Shown piece after piece: positions 189-7,923 of a stretch of DNA of 32,468 bases. The notes under the pieces are model-generated. The model did no database searches, was not told where the DNA came from, and worked only from the letters and a program-made list of their open reading frames with translations. Numbering within the stretch: the first letter of the stretch is position 1; the number at the start of each line of letters is the position of its first letter. Source of the stretch: Bacilli bacterium (GTDB lineage Bacteria > Bacillota_I > Bacilli_A > RF39 > UBA660); the NCBI GenBank assembly GCA_028709545.1, contig JAQVWT010000007.1, positions 1 through 32,468 of the forward strand, written 5' to 3'. Made by a program: the position numbers and the translations under genes.

Positions 189-2819
189 ATGAAAACAACT
201 GCTAAACAATATAAAATATATTTAATAATTGGCATAATGGTTTTATTTGCTGCTATCTTTAGTGCTACTTATGCAGTATTTAGAAAAAGCTCATCGCAAA
301 CAAGTGATAATATGATTAGTACTTTAGATTGTATTGATATTTCTATAACTGGTAATACAGATGCTTTATCATTAACTAGTTATCCAATGACAGATATCGA
401 AGGATCAACTCAGCTTCCATATCGTTTTACTGTTCAAAATAACTGTAGTACATATGTTGAATATCAAATAATAATGTCAGTTGAACAATCTTCAACCATT
501 ACAAACAAAGAATATATAAAAATAGATTTAGCTGGCTTAAAATCAAATAAAAGAGTACTACTTAGTGAGCTTACCGAAGAACCACAACCAGCTCTAACTG
601 GTTATAAAAATAACTATACACTCCTTTCTAATTCATTTAGTGGCGAAGAAAGTCATGTCTATAACTTTAGAATGTGGTTAAGTGGAGAGAATGAAAACAT
701 CTGGACCGATGAAACAATAATAGACCAAACCTTATCAGTAAGATTATCTATTATAGGAGTTACAAAAACCGAACCAAGTGATCTTTTAAATGAGAGAATA
801 CTTGCTCAAGGTGGAGGAAAAGTGGCAATTGAGGCCAAAGGAGACCCTGATTTTTCCAAAATAGCTACTTTAGATGATACAGGACTATATGCAGCCGAAG
901 ATGAGTATGGAACTTCTTATTATTATCGGGGAACCAAAGAATTAAATAATAATTTAATTTGGGGAGGCTTCCAGTGGAAGATAGTCAGAATTAATGGCGA
1001 TGGCTCAATAAGACTTCTATATAATGGCACAGAGGCTCAGTTTAATACAAATGGCACAATGAATGATACTGGAGAAGATACTCAAATAGAAGGAACTTCT
1101 AAATTTAATTCAAACCATGCTGATGCAAAATATGTCGGCTATATGTATGGCGGCGCAGTTGGAGAGCACTCTACACAAAGATTTGGGGAAATCTCAGCTG
1201 CCGCAACATATAATGAGACAAACAGTACAATAAAAGATGAACTAGATGATTGGTATGAGGCTAATATATTAGATAAACCATTTGAAACAGATGTTGCCAA
1301 CAATTTATTTTGTAATGACCGCCAGCTTAAAAGCGAGGTTAGCGGAGAAGCTACAGGCCCTGGTTATGGATATACCGCGGAGTCGGGTTATGCCTCGGAT
1401 TATCGATTATACACAAATAAAAAACCAACCTTAAAATGTGGATTAAAAAACGATCGATTTACTACAAGTGCTGATTCTATAATAGGAAATGGTGTCTTAA
1501 CTTATTCAGTAGGATTATTAACAGCTGACGAAGCATCAATGGCTGGATTAGTATATAATACAAATAATAATACTACCAATTATTTATATACCAATCAGAG
1601 TTGGTGGTCGTTTTCGCCGTACTATATGTTCTGCCCGTTTGCTTATTGTACTGCCCGCATGTTGATCGTTAATTCTTCTGGTCACCTGTATATGGACTGG
1701 ACGATTATGCCCCATGGGTCTCGCCCCTCAGTTTCTTTAATATCTGGGGTTCGAGCAACTGGCGAGGGTAGTGCAGCCGATCCATTTGTAGTAGTCACTG
1801 CGCCAACTTTAGGCGAAGCAATACTAGCTCAAGAGGTTGGTGGACCAGCAATGATAGAAGCAAAAGCAACCCCTGATTTTTCTAAAATAGCCACTTCAGA
1901 ATATGCGGGACTATATGCTGCACCAGATGAATATGGTATGTCCTATTATTATCGGGGAACCAAAGAATTAAATAATAACTTAATTTGGGGAGGTTTTCAG
2001 TGGAAAATCGTCAGAATCAATGGTGATGGATCAATAAGACTTGTTTATAACGGAACACAAGCTCAGTTTATCTCAAAAAGTTCTGTGAATGATACTGGAG
2101 AAGATACTCAAATTGGAACTTCTAGATTTAATTCAGCTATTTATGATGCCAAATATGTCGGTTATATGTATGGTGGATTAGAAGGAGAAGCATCTACGCA
2201 AAGAAACGGGTTAACTTCGGCTGCGGCATCTTATAATGAAACATCAAGCACGATAAAAGGAATACTAGATACATGGTATAAGACTAATATATTTGATCAA
2301 GGCTTAGGATCTCAGGTTGTCGATAATCTATTTTGTAACGATCGACAACTTCAAAGTGAAGTGGGGGGAGATGCAACAGGCCCAGGATATGGTGCATGTT
2401 ATTTAAAATGCGTGACCCATTACGCCGCATCTTACCGTATAATTGAAAATAAAACACCAACATTAAAATGTGACCTTAAGAATGATCGATTTACCACAGG
2501 TACAGATATAGAATTAGGAAATGGGTCTCTTACTTATCCGGTCGGATTATTAACATCTGATGAGGCATCAATGGCAGGCTTAGTACATAATACAAATAAT
2601 ACTACCAATTATTTATATACCAATCATGATTGGTGGTTGCTTACGCCGGACTACGTGGACCCGAATGGTTATGCACACGGGTGGCACATTGATTTGTCTG
2701 GTAAACTTTACGACCACTGGGCAAATTACCTCTATGGGGCTCGCCCGTCAGTTTCTTTAATATCTGGGGTTCGAGTAACCGGAATAGGCAGTGCAAACGA
2801 TCCTTTCAAGGCACTTTAA
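189..2819 (+). CDS. Secreted surface protein: TasA-like N-terminal module plus two tandem DUF6273/lectin-like domains
   Basis: An 876-aa secreted protein. Residues 1-30 form a signal/anchor segment (basic start, hydrophobic stretch, then SATYAVF), like the SipW-processed TasA/CalY class. Residues 30-200 are a beta-rich stalk resembling the N-terminus of the secreted protein at 24871. Two homologous domains of about 340 residues follow, starting near residues 202 and 542. Each contains ILAQ, SYYYRGTKELNNN, WGGFQWKIVRINGDGSIR, NLFCNDRQ, TLKC, DEASMAGL and a WW...RPSVSLISGVR ending. The endings resemble the DUF6273 and C-type-lectin-like tails of gut Firmicutes surface proteins. There is no LPxTG or C-terminal membrane anchor. 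It is probably a ligand-binding or fibre-associated surface protein, but its binding partner is unknown. The tail between WW and RPSV is hypervariable between the copies. The start is the ATG after AAGAAAG. Confidence 0.8.
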   Translation: MKTTAKQYKIYLIIGIMVLFAAIFSATYAVFRKSSSQTSDNMISTLDCIDISITGNTDALSLTSYPMTDIEGSTQLPYRFTVQNNCSTYVEYQIIMSVEQSSTITNKEYIKIDLAGLKSNKRVLLSELTEEPQPALTGYKNNYTLLSNSFSGEESHVYNFRMWLSGENENIWTDETIIDQTLSVRLSIIGVTKTEPSDLLNERILAQGGGKVAIEAKGDPDFSKIATLDDTGLYAAEDEYGTSYYYRGTKELNNNLIWGGFQWKIVRINGDGSIRLLYNGTEAQFNTNGTMNDTGEDTQIEGTSKFNSNHADAKYVGYMYGGAVGEHSTQRFGEISAAATYNETNSTIKDELDDWYEANILDKPFETDVANNLFCNDRQLKSEVSGEATGPGYGYTAESGYASDYRLYTNKKPTLKCGLKNDRFTTSADSIIGNGVLTYSVGLLTADEASMAGLVYNTNNNTTNYLYTNQSWWSFSPYYMFCPFAYCTARMLIVNSSGHLYMDWTIMPHGSRPSVSLISGVRATGEGSAADPFVVVTAPTLGEAILAQEVGGPAMIEAKATPDFSKIATSEYAGLYAAPDEYGMSYYYRGTKELNNNLIWGGFQWKIVRINGDGSIRLVYNGTQAQFISKSSVNDTGEDTQIGTSRFNSAIYDAKYVGYMYGGLEGEASTQRNGLTSAAASYNETSSTIKGILDTWYKTNIFDQGLGSQVVDNLFCNDRQLQSEVGGDATGPGYGACYLKCVTHYAASYRIIENKTPTLKCDLKNDRFTTGTDIELGNGSLTYPVGLLTSDEASMAGLVHNTNNTTNYLYTNHDWWLLTPDYVDPNGYAHGWHIDLSGKLYDHWANYLYGARPSVSLISGVRVTGIGSANDPFKAL
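1598..1720 (+). other. Hypervariable, adenine-poor tail of lectin-like domain 1 (possible DGR variable region)
   Basis: By hand count there are 18 A in 123 nt (about 15%) and 59 G+C (48%), in a gene that is otherwise A-rich. The left flank (TATTTATATACCAATCA) and right flank (TCGCCCCTCAGTTTCTTT) match repeat 2 nearly perfectly, but the interior does not. Most changed codons could come from adenines in a common template. Depletion of A in the coding strand is the known signature of DGR mutagenesis. This assignment is inferred. Confidence 0.5.
2627..2740 (+). other. Hypervariable, adenine-poor tail of lectin-like domain 2 (possible DGR variable region)
   Basis: By hand count there are 24 A in 114 nt (21%) and 58 G+C (51%). 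It is bounded by the same flanks as the patch at 1598-1720 and is 9 nt (three codons) shorter. It encodes a different set of Asp, His, Tyr, Trp and Gly residues around a shared frame (PxY, SGxL, W, G-x-RPSVSL). Confidence 0.5.
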
Positions 2820-2913: not shown

Positions 2914-2943
2914 ATAGCCATTCAAAAGGAGAGGGTTTTGATT

Positions 2944-4830
2944 ATGAAAAAGAAAATATTCTTGATAATTACAGGCATCTTATGTTTATTTGGTTTTACG
3001 TTTAATGCTGAAGCTGCACCTAGCACTATTAATGCTGGAAGCATGACTCGTATTACTGATTATGTCGAAGGAGTTCCTGCTTGGGTAAAGACTACTAGTA
3101 ATTTAAGTCACTATTTGTATTGTGAAGTTGCTAATTTAACTTTCCCAAGTAATAAAACATTGACACTAGGAACAGAAGTCGATAAAGGGTTTATTTATAT
3201 TTTAAATAATAAACCAAATACTGGTAATAGCGATAAAGACTATTATATTAAGCAAATAGCTGTTTGGTGGTATAAGGATGTTCTTGCTGGAGGAAATGCT
3301 AATATTTCAGCTAGCACTAAAACATATTGTACTAATAATAGATATACTCATGATGTATGTGGTAAAATATATAACTTAGTAGAAGGTGCAAAAAAACATA
3401 AAGTTGTAAAAGGTGTAATGAGTTTTGACGAAAACAATGTTAAATTTAGTGAAAGTAGTGGATACTATGTATCTGATAAGATTAGTTTCACTTCTTCAAA
3501 TTTAACTTCTTTAGGTAGTTTAAAATTAGTTAATGCACCAGCTGGTTCAATTATTGTTAATAGTACTATAAATTCAACTAATAAAGCAGGAACATTTAAA
3601 ATAAAAGTTCCAATAAGTTCGGTAAGATCAGGAGAAACTATTGAGTTTTCAGTTGAAGTAGATGGAAACTACAATACTTATTCTGTTTATGATTATTTAT
3701 ATACTGCAGCTTATCAAAGAGTTATTTATGATAAAGTATATGTTAATAATCATCCACTAAGAGCATCTAAAATATTTAAAATTACTAAAGCAAGTATTCC
3801 AAATGATACTAACTTATTAACTATTTATAAAGTTGATCAAGATGGAAACTCTTTAAAAAATGCTACTTTAACACTTTATAGAGGAAATTGTTTAAATTCT
3901 ACTTGTTATAGTAGTGATATATATACAACTTGGAAAACAACTACTAATCCAACAATATTTACTAATATTCCAACTGGTTATTATACAATTGTTGAAACCA
4001 GTACGCCAGTAGGATATACTACAGCACCTAAAGGATTAATTCGTGTTAGATATTCAGATGAAAGTTATTATCATACAGTAGTAAATGTTAAAGATACTGA
4101 AGTAAATCCTGTTAGAATAAGTAAAACTGATGTAATTAGTAAAAATGAAATTGCTGGAGCAACATTAGTTATTAAAGATTCTAATAATAATGAGGTAGTT
4201 TCATGGGTAAGTACTAATTCACCTAAATACTTAACTTTAGCTGAAGGAGAATATACTTTAGTTGAAAAATATGCACCGGCTGGTTATAAATTAACTACAA
4301 ATGATATTGATTTTAAAGTTGATGAAGTAGGTAATGTTATGGTTAAATCTAGTGCTGGAAAATATGTATCTACTCAATATATAAATATAGTTAATGAAAA
4401 AACTGATACTATAAATATTAGTAAACTAGATAAAAGCACTAATAATTATTTAACTGGAGCAACGCTTAGAATTAAAAATGAAAAGGGAGAAATTGTCACT
4501 ACTTGGGTAACAACTGGAGAAAGTTATAACACTTTATTAAGTAAAGGGGATTATACGCTAGAAGAGATATCAGCTCCAACTGGATATGATCTAAATAAAG
4601 AAGTTGTTTATTTTAGAGTATTAGAAGATGGAACACTGCTGATAAGAAATAATAGCGGAGTATATGAACTTGCTAACGGAATAATTGTTTATAATATGCC
4701 AGTTCTAGAAGAAGAAACTGTTATTGTACCGAAAACAGGCTTAACAAGTATACTTACTTATACTTTCGGAACACTAACTTTAGCAAGTGGTGCCTATTTA
4801 TTAAAGAAAAATGGACAATTTAGTATCTAA
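2944..4830 (+). CDS. Sortase-anchored thioester-domain adhesin with three Cna-B/SpaA-type domains
   Basis: A 628-aa wall-anchored adhesin. Residues 1-27 are a signal peptide (MKKK start, ending NAEAA). A thioester domain follows: Cys60 (in YLYCEV) and Gln104 (in KQIAVWWY) are the pair expected to form the internal Cys-Gln thioester that binds host surfaces covalently. Three Cna-B/SpaA repeats (about residues 293-385, 386-482 and 485-580) each carry the Lys-rich first strand and a YTxxE...P.GY E-box, which predict stabilising isopeptide bonds. A sorting signal VPKTG (595-599), a hydrophobic segment and a short tail ending KKNGQFSI close the protein. I chose ATG 2944 over the upstream TTG at 2938 because of the Shine-Dalgarno spacing and the canonical signal peptide. 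The 3' end overlaps the sortase gene by 20 nt, so the two are probably co-translated. Confidence 0.88.
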   Translation: MKKKIFLIITGILCLFGFTFNAEAAPSTINAGSMTRITDYVEGVPAWVKTTSNLSHYLYCEVANLTFPSNKTLTLGTEVDKGFIYILNNKPNTGNSDKDYYIKQIAVWWYKDVLAGGNANISASTKTYCTNNRYTHDVCGKIYNLVEGAKKHKVVKGVMSFDENNVKFSESSGYYVSDKISFTSSNLTSLGSLKLVNAPAGSIIVNSTINSTNKAGTFKIKVPISSVRSGETIEFSVEVDGNYNTYSVYDYLYTAAYQRVIYDKVYVNNHPLRASKIFKITKASIPNDTNLLTIYKVDQDGNSLKNATLTLYRGNCLNSTCYSSDIYTTWKTTTNPTIFTNIPTGYYTIVETSTPVGYTTAPKGLIRVRYSDESYYHTVVNVKDTEVNPVRISKTDVISKNEIAGATLVIKDSNNNEVVSWVSTNSPKYLTLAEGEYTLVEKYAPAGYKLTTNDIDFKVDEVGNVMVKSSAGKYVSTQYINIVNEKTDTINISKLDKSTNNYLTGATLRIKNEKGEIVTTWVTTGESYNTLLSKGDYTLEEISAPTGYDLNKEVVYFRVLEDGTLLIRNNSGVYELANGIIVYNMPVLEEETVIVPKTGLTSILTYTFGTLTLASGAYLLKKNGQFSI

Positions 4831-5500
4831 AAGAAAAATAAAAGTAACACTTGGAGTGCTTATAACATTTATTGGTTTATGTATTATATCAAGTACTTAT
4901 TTTAAAGAAAAGAAATTTGAAGTATTTGATGAAATGAATGAATTATATTATGAACAGATAGTTGAATTAGCTAATATACCAGAAGAGATAGATACTCTAG
5001 AATTACCAGAGGAGATAGATACTCCAGTAATAGAAGACCCAGAAGAAATAATTGAGGCTGTAGAGACAGTAGTACCTGTACCTGCACCAGTAATTGATTA
5101 TTCAAAATATTATATTGGTTATTTATCAATTCCAAAAATAAATTTAAAAAAAGGTTTTACAGAAATTAATAGTAAATATAATAATGTTAATCGTAATATT
5201 GAAATTATTAAACCATCTAAATATCCTGATGTTTCTAAAAGTAATTTAATTATTGCTAGTCATTCAGGAAGTAGTTCTGTATCATTTTTTAAAGACTTAT
5301 ATAAATTAAAACTTGAGGATGATGTATTTATAACTTATAATGGTACTGAATATAAATATAAAATAAAAAACATTTATACTGATTTAAAAGACGGTGATGT
5401 TGTTATTAAAAGAAATAAAGATATAACAACACTAACACTTATTACATGTACTAAAGGGGATAAAAACACACAAACTATATATATTTGTGAACTAGTTTAA
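4811..5500 (+). CDS. Sortase (probably dedicated to the adjacent adhesin)
   Basis: A 229-aa membrane-anchored transpeptidase. An N-terminal transmembrane segment (residues 11-30) is followed by an acidic, Pro/Glu-rich linker (about 40-95) and a sortase domain starting near SKYYIGYLSIPKI. The catalytic His is H151 (IIASHSG) and the catalytic Cys is C213 (TLITCT). No arginine follows C213: the tail is TKGDKNTQTIYICELV, where sortases usually have the third catalytic residue, Arg. It either belongs to a subfamily with a substituted residue or has altered activity. It overlaps the adhesin gene by 20 nt and has only a weak Shine-Dalgarno, which suggests coupling. By context it attaches the VPKTG protein to the wall or builds a polymer of it. 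Confidence 0.85.
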   Translation: MDNLVSKRKIKVTLGVLITFIGLCIISSTYFKEKKFEVFDEMNELYYEQIVELANIPEEIDTLELPEEIDTPVIEDPEEIIEAVETVVPVPAPVIDYSKYYIGYLSIPKINLKKGFTEINSKYNNVNRNIEIIKPSKYPDVSKSNLIIASHSGSSSVSFFKDLYKLKLEDDVFITYNGTEYKYKIKNIYTDLKDGDVVIKRNKDITTLTLITCTKGDKNTQTIYICELV

Positions 5501-5517: not shown

Positions 5518-5604
5518 AAAAGAGGTGATGATTATGGTAGAGTATACTCTCCTAGAAAAGATTAAAACAGTTTTTAATCTTATATATACATCACCTCTTT
5601 TTTT
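5518..5604 (+). promoter_or_regulatory. Structured RNA element: 13-bp stem enclosing start codon, with internal hairpins and T-run
   Basis: AAAAGAGGTGATG (5518-5530) pairs perfectly with CATCACCTCTTTT (5589-5601), followed by T's to 5604. The loop holds a GAGTATACTC palindrome (5540-5549) and a perfect 10-bp hairpin, AAGATTAAAA (5558-5567) with TTTTAATCTT (5572-5581). The outer 5' arm contains the Shine-Dalgarno of the gene starting at 5534. The 3' arm and T-run are inside that gene. This could act as an intrinsic terminator/attenuator or block translation; the function is inferred. Confidence 0.55.
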
Positions 5605-6256
5605 GATTTTACTTTTAGGAATATCTTTAATGGTAATAGATATATTATTTATTTCTAAAAAGGATTCTAAAACAAAAATTGTTTATGGGATAGTATCAAT
5701 TATCTTAATATTCTTCTTTATGTATTCTTATTTAGAATCACTGCTTAGTATCTTTGATACAATAGCTAAAAATATAGTGGCAATTATCTATTTTCCATCA
5801 GTACTTGAATATATATTAATGCTTCTTATTAGTTTAATAATATTAATTGTTAGTGTTGTTAGTAAGAAGATGAATAAAACAGTTAAAAGAATTAACTTAT
5901 TTGTTTTAATTATAAATAGTTTTCTCTTTTTTCTAATTTTAGATCAAATAGCTAAAAGTAATGTTGATTTAACCAATAAAATAAGTATTTATACTAATAG
6001 TACCTTAATGATGCTTTTAGAATTAAGTATAATTATCTTTGTGATTTGGATTACTTTCTTAATATTATATAAAATAATAAAAGCTTTTTTACCAAAAGAA
6101 AATTTAGAAACTTCTAATATAATATTAGATTTTCCAAAAACTATTGAAGAAGTAAAAAAAACAGAGAAAGAAGAAATGTTTACTTTAAAAGAATATCGTC
6201 AGATGAAAGTTTTGCTTGAGTCTATGAAAGAAAATGAAAGCGAAGAAAATAGCTAA
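5534..6256 (+). CDS. Multi-pass membrane protein of unknown function
   Basis: About 240 aa with roughly five hydrophobic segments (around residues 18-38, 49-68, 83-107, 120-140, 157-182). A charged cytoplasmic-looking tail rich in Glu/Lys ends ENESEENS. I do not recognise a family. The start is ATG 5534, six bases after AGAGGTG; the GTG at 5525 and ATG at 5528 lie inside that Shine-Dalgarno. It is the last gene of the adhesin-sortase unit and may help export or anchor that adhesin, which is inferred from position only. Its ribosome-binding site is sequestered in the 5518-5604 structure. Confidence 0.7.
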   Translation: MVEYTLLEKIKTVFNLIYTSPLFLILLLGISLMVIDILFISKKDSKTKIVYGIVSIILIFFFMYSYLESLLSIFDTIAKNIVAIIYFPSVLEYILMLLISLIILIVSVVSKKMNKTVKRINLFVLIINSFLFFLILDQIAKSNVDLTNKISIYTNSTLMMLLELSIIIFVIWITFLILYKIIKAFLPKENLETSNIILDFPKTIEEVKKTEKEEMFTLKEYRQMKVLLESMKENESEENS

Positions 6257-6276: not shown

Positions 6277-7923
6277 TTAATCAACTATTAATTTAGCATG
6301 AACAACTAATCGATCTTGTCCTCGGTTATCACAAGTAGATAACGTTAATATCTTATCATTAGTAGTAATATTTTGATTAAAATTATAAACACTTCTTCCA
6401 ACTATTAGATCTAAGAAATTTTGATAATCTTCTTTAGTATAAAAAGAGGTTGTTAAATAATCAGTTGTATTAGGAATTTTATAAATAGATATTATTTGCC
6501 ATTTATACGCAGAATTTATAGTGTTAAAAGTAATTACTTGATTATTTGTTTTAGCGTGCCATGAACTATTCATCGTATATCTAAGAGTTCCAAACATAAT
6601 ACCAGCAGTTATATTATGTCCATATATTATTGTATTTTGATTTAAAACATCAATACTATTTCGGTAGTCCATAAATATCCAACCCATAGAGTTTTTATAA
6701 CTATTATAATCTCTATTTAGATAATATTCATTATCAGTAGCTTGTACTACTGGATAATCAATTCTCGTATTATTAACTGTCAGCCAACCCTTAGTATCAC
6801 TATTTATTTTAAGTAAGGTATCAAAAACCTTATCATAATTTTTATAATAAGAACTAACATAATTACTTTTAGTAGTAGTAGTGTCTTTTGGAACCACTCC
6901 ATCTATATAATCATATTCAGGATCTTGATCATTAAAATCATATTCATCATCAATTTGTTTAATAATATTCTTAAGTTCAGCTTCTATCTTTTTTATATCA
7001 CTTGCTTGAGTATAGTTTTTATAATAATTAAGCCCCATTAAAGTAAGACTTAAAATAATAACTCCTAAAATACATATTTTTATAAAATTTAAATTAATTT
7101 GTTTAAACAAATTTTTCCTTTTAAATTCTAAACTATAATTTATTTTAAATTTAATATTATTCTCTTTAAAATATTTATCATAATCAAGTTTAATATTATT
7201 TAAAGAATGATATATATCATTTAAGTTATTTCCTTCTTCTAATATCACAATTTTAATATTAACTTTATTATTATCAGATAATAATTTAATAATATATTTT
7301 AAGACAGAACTAGAAAATTTATTTAAATAAATTACTTTTAAATAATTATTAATATTAATAAATATTTCAAAATCATTAATATCTTCTTCAGTAAATAGAT
7401 TATTGATATTAATACTTTTTTTATAATAAATATCACTATAAGTAATAAGATTATTACTACTCATAAACTGACTAATAAAAAATATTTCCGTTCTCGTTTT
7501 AACTACTAAATTTTTATTTAAATCAAGACGTTCTAATAAATACTTAGGTATATCATAAACTTCTAATACTTTAAGGTATTTATTTTCAAGCAGCTCCATA
7601 AATATTTTATAATTAACTTGTTTATCAGGCTTGATATATAACTCTTCAATTGAAGGTATCTCATTAATTATTTTAATAATTAGTGATATTATCGAATAAT
7701 CTCTAATACTTACCTTATTAACTTCTCTTTTAATAATTACAACATTTAAAAATGAAGATACTAAATCTAAATTATCTATTATATAATCTTTACTAAAGAC
7801 AAGTTCTTTAGTATCAATTATATTCGTATTATTTAAATTCTCTTTAATAGTATCTTTTTTTAAAATTGATACAACTAATAAGTTTCTGGTTATTTTAAAC
7901 ATTATTTTATCCAAATATATCAC
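6277..7923 (-). CDS. Class B-type sortase with a large N-terminal cytoplasmic extension
   Basis: A 548-aa protein. Residues 1-280 are an Asn/Ile/Lys-rich region I do not recognise, predicted cytoplasmic. A transmembrane helix (about 284-303) is followed by an extracellular class B sortase domain: GWLTVNNTRIDYPVV, H436 in YGHN, C531 in TLSTC and R538 in QDRLVVHAKL complete the catalytic triad. Usual SrtB enzymes are about 220-280 aa, so the extra half is unusual. The first codon is a GTG (7923-7921) with AGGAT about 11 nt upstream; an ATG at 7902 (MFKITRNL) is an alternative. It is transcribed divergently from the TasA-like gene at 8056 and convergently to the adhesin cluster, so it may be a general sortase for this surface region. 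Confidence 0.85.
   Translation of the reverse strand: MIYLDKIMFKITRNLLVVSILKKDTIKENLNNTNIIDTKELVFSKDYIIDNLDLVSSFLNVVIIKREVNKVSIRDYSIISLIIKIINEIPSIEELYIKPDKQVNYKIFMELLENKYLKVLEVYDIPKYLLERLDLNKNLVVKTRTEIFFISQFMSSNNLITYSDIYYKKSININNLFTEEDINDFEIFININNYLKVIYLNKFSSSVLKYIIKLLSDNNKVNIKIVILEEGNNLNDIYHSLNNIKLDYDKYFKENNIKFKINYSLEFKRKNLFKQINLNFIKICILGVIILSLTLMGLNYYKNYTQASDIKKIEAELKNIIKQIDDEYDFNDQDPEYDYIDGVVPKDTTTTKSNYVSSYYKNYDKVFDTLLKINSDTKGWLTVNNTRIDYPVVQATDNEYYLNRDYNSYKNSMGWIFMDYRNSIDVLNQNTIIYGHNITAGIMFGTLRYTMNSSWHAKTNNQVITFNTINSAYKWQIISIYKIPNTTDYLTTSFYTKEDYQNFLDLIVGRSVYNFNQNITTNDKILTLSTCDNRGQDRLVVHAKLIVD

What the first reader, a model, noticed from the sequence alone, without database searches (positions are those of the whole stretch)
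5518..5604. Branched RNA structure covering a start codon and ending in a T-run inside the gene
An 87-nt stretch folds into a 13-bp perfect outer stem, a GAGTATACTC palindrome and a perfect 10-bp inner hairpin, with T7 after it. The outer stem hides the Shine-Dalgarno, and its other arm is coding. This much pairing within the first 25 codons is very unlikely by chance. It could be a self-attenuating terminator or a regulator-controlled switch for the third gene of the adhesin cluster.
Basis: partly seen in the sequence, partly recalled or inferred. Interest (0 to 1): 0.6.

Follow-up and report, generated by a model that had tools for sequence, protein, structure and literature searches.

The report
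Gene masks its own ribosome site
In an uncultured Bacilli bacterium, the messenger RNA of a membrane-protein gene next to a sortase (an enzyme that anchors surface proteins) folds so that its own codons 19-23 cover its ribosome landing site, and the same masking has co-evolved in many relatives, which points to a real built-in control of translation rather than chance.

Summary
The structure is real. A 13-bp stem (5518-5530/5589-5601) pairs the Shine-Dalgarno (SD) of gene 4 (ATG 5534) with its own codons 19-23 and encloses two hairpins (MFE -28.3, z -6.0). It is the strongest SD masking among 165 genes sampled from this genome. All 8 species of the genus and 3 of a sister genus have the gene; ten of these 11 keep the long stem, with the SD-ATG spacer and coding arm changing together. 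In the eleventh (L003), with no sortase directly upstream, it is weakened.

Family-wide (109 homologues, nearly all about 22 nt behind a sortase), each gene's SD region pairs better with its own codons 17-26 than with other members' (z -10; still -4.4 among 16 proteins under 35% identical). Sortase starts and other genes show nothing. About 40% of members carry the pairing, with very different sequences.

The T-run is kept in the genus but absent in most other masked lineages, so the shared function is SD masking, not termination. Best explanation: a cis-acting translation gate keeping the membrane protein low or coupled to sortase translation. Folding of partial transcripts leaves the SD open until about 5592, then shut. 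Coupling is inferred, not tested.

The parts
5518..5530 (+). P1 5' arm AAAAGAGGTGATG (holds the SD)
   Evidence: conserved pairing
5520..5529 (+). Shine-Dalgarno AAGAGGTGAT of gene 4
   Evidence: anti-SD duplex energy -11.8 kcal/mol
5534..5536 (+). start codon ATG of gene 4
   Evidence: aligned start in homologues
5540..5549 (+). P2 palindrome GAGTATACTC (codons 3-6)
5558..5581 (+). P3 hairpin, 10 bp, loop CAGT
5589..5601 (+). P1 3' arm CATCACCTCTTTT (codons 19-23), anti-SD inside the ORF
5598..5604 (+). T7 run after and partly inside the 3' arm; invariant in the genus and sister, mostly absent in other masked lineages
5534..6256 (+). gene 4: 240-aa membrane protein of unnamed family
4811..5500 (+). 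sortase gene directly upstream
   Evidence: Pfam PF04203; NCBIfam; neighbour in nearly all homologues

Best explanation
The element is a cis-acting translation gate. After the sortase stop, the growing mRNA first exposes a strong SD for gene 4 while two small hairpins (P2, P3) form. Once RNA polymerase has passed codons 19-23, that coding arm pairs with the SD (P1) and shuts the start site by about 15 kcal/mol. Gene 4 is then translated mainly by a ribosome that arrives during the short open window or keeps the stem open, most plausibly the ribosome finishing the sortase (translational coupling), so that the membrane protein stays low and tied to sortase synthesis. Shown here by computation: the structure, its selection at RNA level, its co-evolution and its place behind a sortase. 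Inferred: repression of translation, and coupling to the sortase.
For: Stem and SD masking unique in rank among 165 genes of the genome. Own-arm pairing excess, 109 homologues -13.7 against -11.3 +/- 0.24 permuted, and z -4.4 among 16 proteins under 35% identity; matched sortase starts show none. Signal confined to coding +36..+89, peak +48..+77. Synonymous shuffles: 37 of 110 homologues at or below 10/200 against 8 of 165 controls. Excess synonymous conservation in codons 13-24 (0.25) and 1-12 (0.15). Sense-strand G-U pairs and better folding in sense on average. SD open until the transcript reaches about 5592, closed by 5600. Sortase ends a median 22 nt upstream.
Against: No expression data. 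Only about 40% of homologues have it, so the protein does not require it everywhere. In this species the stem starts 18 nt behind the sortase stop, at or beyond the usual reach of a terminating ribosome, so direct melting is less obvious here than in relatives with gaps of 10-22 nt. The amino-acid motif Ser-Pro-Leu-Phe is itself anti-SD-like, which may have seeded the pairing.
Confidence: 0.62

Rival explanations
1. Self-attenuating intrinsic terminator: when gene 4 is not translated, P1 plus T7 stops transcription near 5604, and translation prevents it.
For: Stem followed by T7 in all 11 species of the genus and sister.
Against: The 3' arm closes a 58-nt branched loop, unlike ordinary terminators. 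The T-run is absent in most P1-bearing lineages outside the genus and is what the codons of Pro-Leu-Phe-Leu give. The pattern scan did not list it, though its loop limit of 8 nt could not.
Confidence: 0.13
2. Insulator (ribosome termination structure): P1 blocks ribosomes that finish the sortase from re-initiating, so gene 4 is translated only by fresh initiation at a low rate.
For: Stable structure shortly behind a stop codon, as described in PMC7518266; gap of 33 nt here.
Against: It masks an apparently excellent SD of a real downstream gene. That paper reports such structures as depleted where neighbouring genes are under 25 nt apart, and most masked homologues have gaps under 25 nt.
Confidence: 0.13
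3. Regulated switch: P1 is opened by a protein, small RNA, temperature or RNase III processing rather than by sortase translation.
For: Three-way junction with P2 and P3 conserved in the genus.
Against: P2 and P3 are not recognisably shared beyond the genus and sister; no Rfam match at gathering score; about 15 kcal/mol is very stable for a thermosensor.
Confidence: 0.1
4. By-product of the protein motif: codons for Ser-Pro-Leu-Phe resemble the anti-SD and pair with any SD by accident.
For: Permuted partners already pair well in this region.
Against: Own arms beat permuted arms, synonymous shuffles are beaten, and lineages with other residues there also pair.
Confidence: 0.02

Closest known systems
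RBS-masking structures of translationally coupled genes (for example E. coli rpmI-rplT, phage MS2 coat-lysis; review PMC12548453)
   Same: Downstream gene of a close pair with its ribosome site held in mRNA structure.
   Different: Here the masking arm is the gene's own codons 19-23 rather than the upstream gene, the pairing recurs with unrelated sequences across a family, and coupling is not shown.
SD-sequestering hairpin inside the aapA3 toxin ORF of Helicobacter pylori (PMC6733600)
   Same: An anti-SD inside the ORF pairs with the SD.
   Different: There the hairpins are transient steps in a type I toxin mRNA with an antisense RNA; here the stem is the stable state and the gene is an operon member.
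Ribosome termination structure (PMC7518266)
   Same: Stable mRNA structure shortly behind a stop codon.
   Different: [quoted passage not shown] this one is built around a strong SD of a real gene.
Rho-independent attenuator
   Same: Stem followed by T7 in this genus.
   Different: Long branched loop, T-run not kept in most masked relatives, no alternative antiterminator shown.

Membership tests
SD-masking translational control element | SD or start codon held in stable structure in the gene's own mRNA | tested here: met
SD-masking translational control element | masking conserved through compensatory or co-varying change | tested here: met
SD-masking translational control element | opening the stem raises translation | not testable with these tools
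   needs reporter assays
Translationally coupled gene pair | downstream gene close behind the stop of the upstream gene on the same strand | tested here: met
   33 nt in the window; median 22 nt in homologues
Translationally coupled gene pair | translation of the downstream gene depends on translation of the upstream gene | not testable with these tools
   no expression data
Intrinsic terminator / attenuator | compact G+C-rich hairpin directly followed by a T-run | tested here: inconclusive
   T7 follows P1, but P1 closes a 58-nt branched loop; the scan only allows loops of 3-8 nt
Intrinsic terminator / attenuator | T-run conserved together with the stem | tested here: not met
   kept in the genus and sister, absent in most other masked lineages
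Known riboswitch or other Rfam element | match at the family's gathering score | tested here: not met
RNA thermometer | melts within the growth temperature range | not tested
   about 15 kcal/mol opening energy at 37 C argues against

The most novel reading that the evidence does not exclude
A one-shot, timing-based gate: the SD is open only while RNA polymerase covers about 65 nt, so about one pioneer ribosome per mRNA (the one finishing the sortase) can start gene 4. If it misses, P1 shuts the SD and, in this genus, the T7 also ends transcription. The dose of the membrane protein would then follow mRNA number rather than ribosome supply.
Probability: 0.15. Interest if true: 0.7.

Novelty: new member of a known kind. 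Interest (0 to 1): 0.45.

Why it matters
It is an apparently undescribed, widely conserved translation control in a sortase-linked gene pair of a large uncultured family of Bacilli. It flags an unnamed membrane protein (no Pfam or NCBIfam match) as a sortase partner whose dose seems to be held down. The natural set of masked and unmasked homologues gives a ready comparison for how a gene evolves to mask its start site with its own codons under protein constraint.

Tried and rejected
Rfam at gathering score and at E up to 5: nothing credible. AlphaFold2 model of gene 4 (pLDDT 73, all-helical) and Foldseek against the PDB: no match at E 0.001, so no function from fold. Pfam and NCBIfam: none for the window protein; single weak Pfam hits in other members judged spurious. 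Consensus folding of the genus alignment counts few both-side changes because the inner part of P1 shifts register and holds bulges, so the arm-swap test was used instead. One pair-count call failed on string length and was not repeated. An antisense-strand element was rejected: folding is better in sense on average and G-U pairs are kept in sense, although the window's own sequence folds equally well on both strands.

Full report
Observation. The sequence at 5518-5604 is as described: a 13-bp outer stem P1 (5518-5530 with 5589-5601), a palindromic hairpin P2, a 10-bp hairpin P3 (5558-5581) and T7 at 5598-5604. The fold is far more stable than dinucleotide shuffles (z -6.0). The 5' arm holds the SD AAGAGGTGAT of an ORF starting at ATG 5534; the 3' arm is codons 19-23 (Thr-Ser-Pro-Leu-Phe). 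Among 165 SD-bearing genes from the window and 20 contigs of the same genome, this gene has the strongest SD-to-own-coding pairing and the highest SD opening energy.

Context. The gene lies 33 nt behind a sortase (4811-5500, Pfam PF04203), which follows a SpaA-type surface protein (2938-4830). The product is a 240-aa membrane protein with no Pfam or NCBIfam match. Homologues occur in 148 of 386 sampled genomes of the same family and, in a class-wide sample of 395 genomes, only in that family. In nearly all of the 110 start regions examined an ORF with a sortase-like C-terminus ends just upstream, median gap 22 nt.

Genus-level test. All 8 species of the genus and 3 of 4 genomes of a sister genus carry the gene. 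Ten of the 11 keep a long P1. The SD core and the CCTCTTTTTTT arm are invariant or nearly so, while the SD-ATG spacer and codons 17-20 vary together: for example GATG/CATC in the window, GATTCA/TGAATC in L004, TTAGT/ACTAA in L006. Own arms pair better than arms swapped among species (14 of 20000 permutations as good). Synonymous conservation in excess of saturation is 0.25 in codons 13-24 and 0.15 in codons 1-12, against at most 0.10 in codons 25-180; two sparsely filled later windows reach 0.15-0.17. The low-use codons GAG (codon 3), CCT (21) and CTT (22) are fixed in 11 of 11. One species (L003) has no sortase directly upstream on its short contig, and there the 5' arm has changed and the pairing is weaker; this is a single case near the end of a short assembly contig.

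Family-level test. With 109 homologues the own 5' region (-25..+2) pairs with own codons 11-31 at -13.7 kcal/mol on average against -11.3 +/- 0.24 when partners are permuted. Among 16 representatives below 35% identity the excess is still 4.4 sd, and sortase starts from the same loci show no excess. Genes of the own genome show none. Scanned along the coding region, the signal is confined to +36..+89 with its peak at +48..+77, z -7.5, and is absent elsewhere. Synonymous shuffles that keep the protein place 37 of 110 homologues at or below 10 of 200, against 8 of 165 control genes, about the 5% expected. Not all members have it: 43 of 109 were scored positive, clustered on the protein tree, with at least 12 changes forced by well-supported branches. 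Pairing sequences differ completely between lineages, such as GGGGGTGGGAGTT with AACTCCCA in L098 and GTGAAGATGATG with CATCATCTTCA in L054.

Termination or translation. The T-run is present throughout the genus and sister but lacking in most other P1-bearing lineages, and it is what Pro-Leu-Phe-Leu or Pro-Phe-Phe codons give in an AT-rich genome. The shared property is therefore SD masking. Folding of growing transcripts shows the SD free (opening 0.4-1.4 kcal/mol) until the 3' end reaches about 5592, then closed at about 15 kcal/mol by 5600, leaving about 65 nt of transcription with the SD exposed.

Mechanism. I judge a cis-acting translation gate most likely, probably coupling gene 4 to sortase translation. 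The unfolding and re-initiation models of coupling, and the frequent silencing of the downstream gene by structure at its ribosome site, are reviewed in PMC12548453. An anti-SD inside an ORF that masks the SD during transcription is known from aapA3 (PMC6733600). The main rivals are insulation against re-initiation (PMC7518266) and attenuation. Coupling, repression and termination have not been measured. A search for papers joining sortase or pilin with translational coupling and SD found nothing on this arrangement.

Limits. Most genomes are probably metagenome assemblies; start codons were assigned by rule; energies are for naked RNA at 37 C; related sequences are not independent, although the test on distant representatives and the matched sortase control address this.

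Noticed in passing
window 189-2819 (+): 876-aa ORF with an N-terminal hydrophobic segment and a tandem internal repeat of several hundred residues (two copies of ...FSKIA...NNLIWGGFQWKIVRINGDG...GARPSVSLISGVR...); no Pfam or NCBIfam match.
   Followed up: partly
window 6277-7923 (-): Class B sortase (TIGR03064) with a long N-terminal extension, convergent to the cluster with a different sortase, so two sortase classes lie side by side.
   Followed up: partly
L003 / L023, 1-131: Close homologue of gene 4 without a sortase directly upstream; the sequence departs at the SD and the masking stem is weaker, a possible natural test of the coupling idea, on a short contig.
   Followed up: partly
L092, L094, L106, L120: Where the sortase and gene 4 overlap or nearly touch (gap -1 to 2 nt) no SD masking is seen; too few cases to test.
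   Followed up: no
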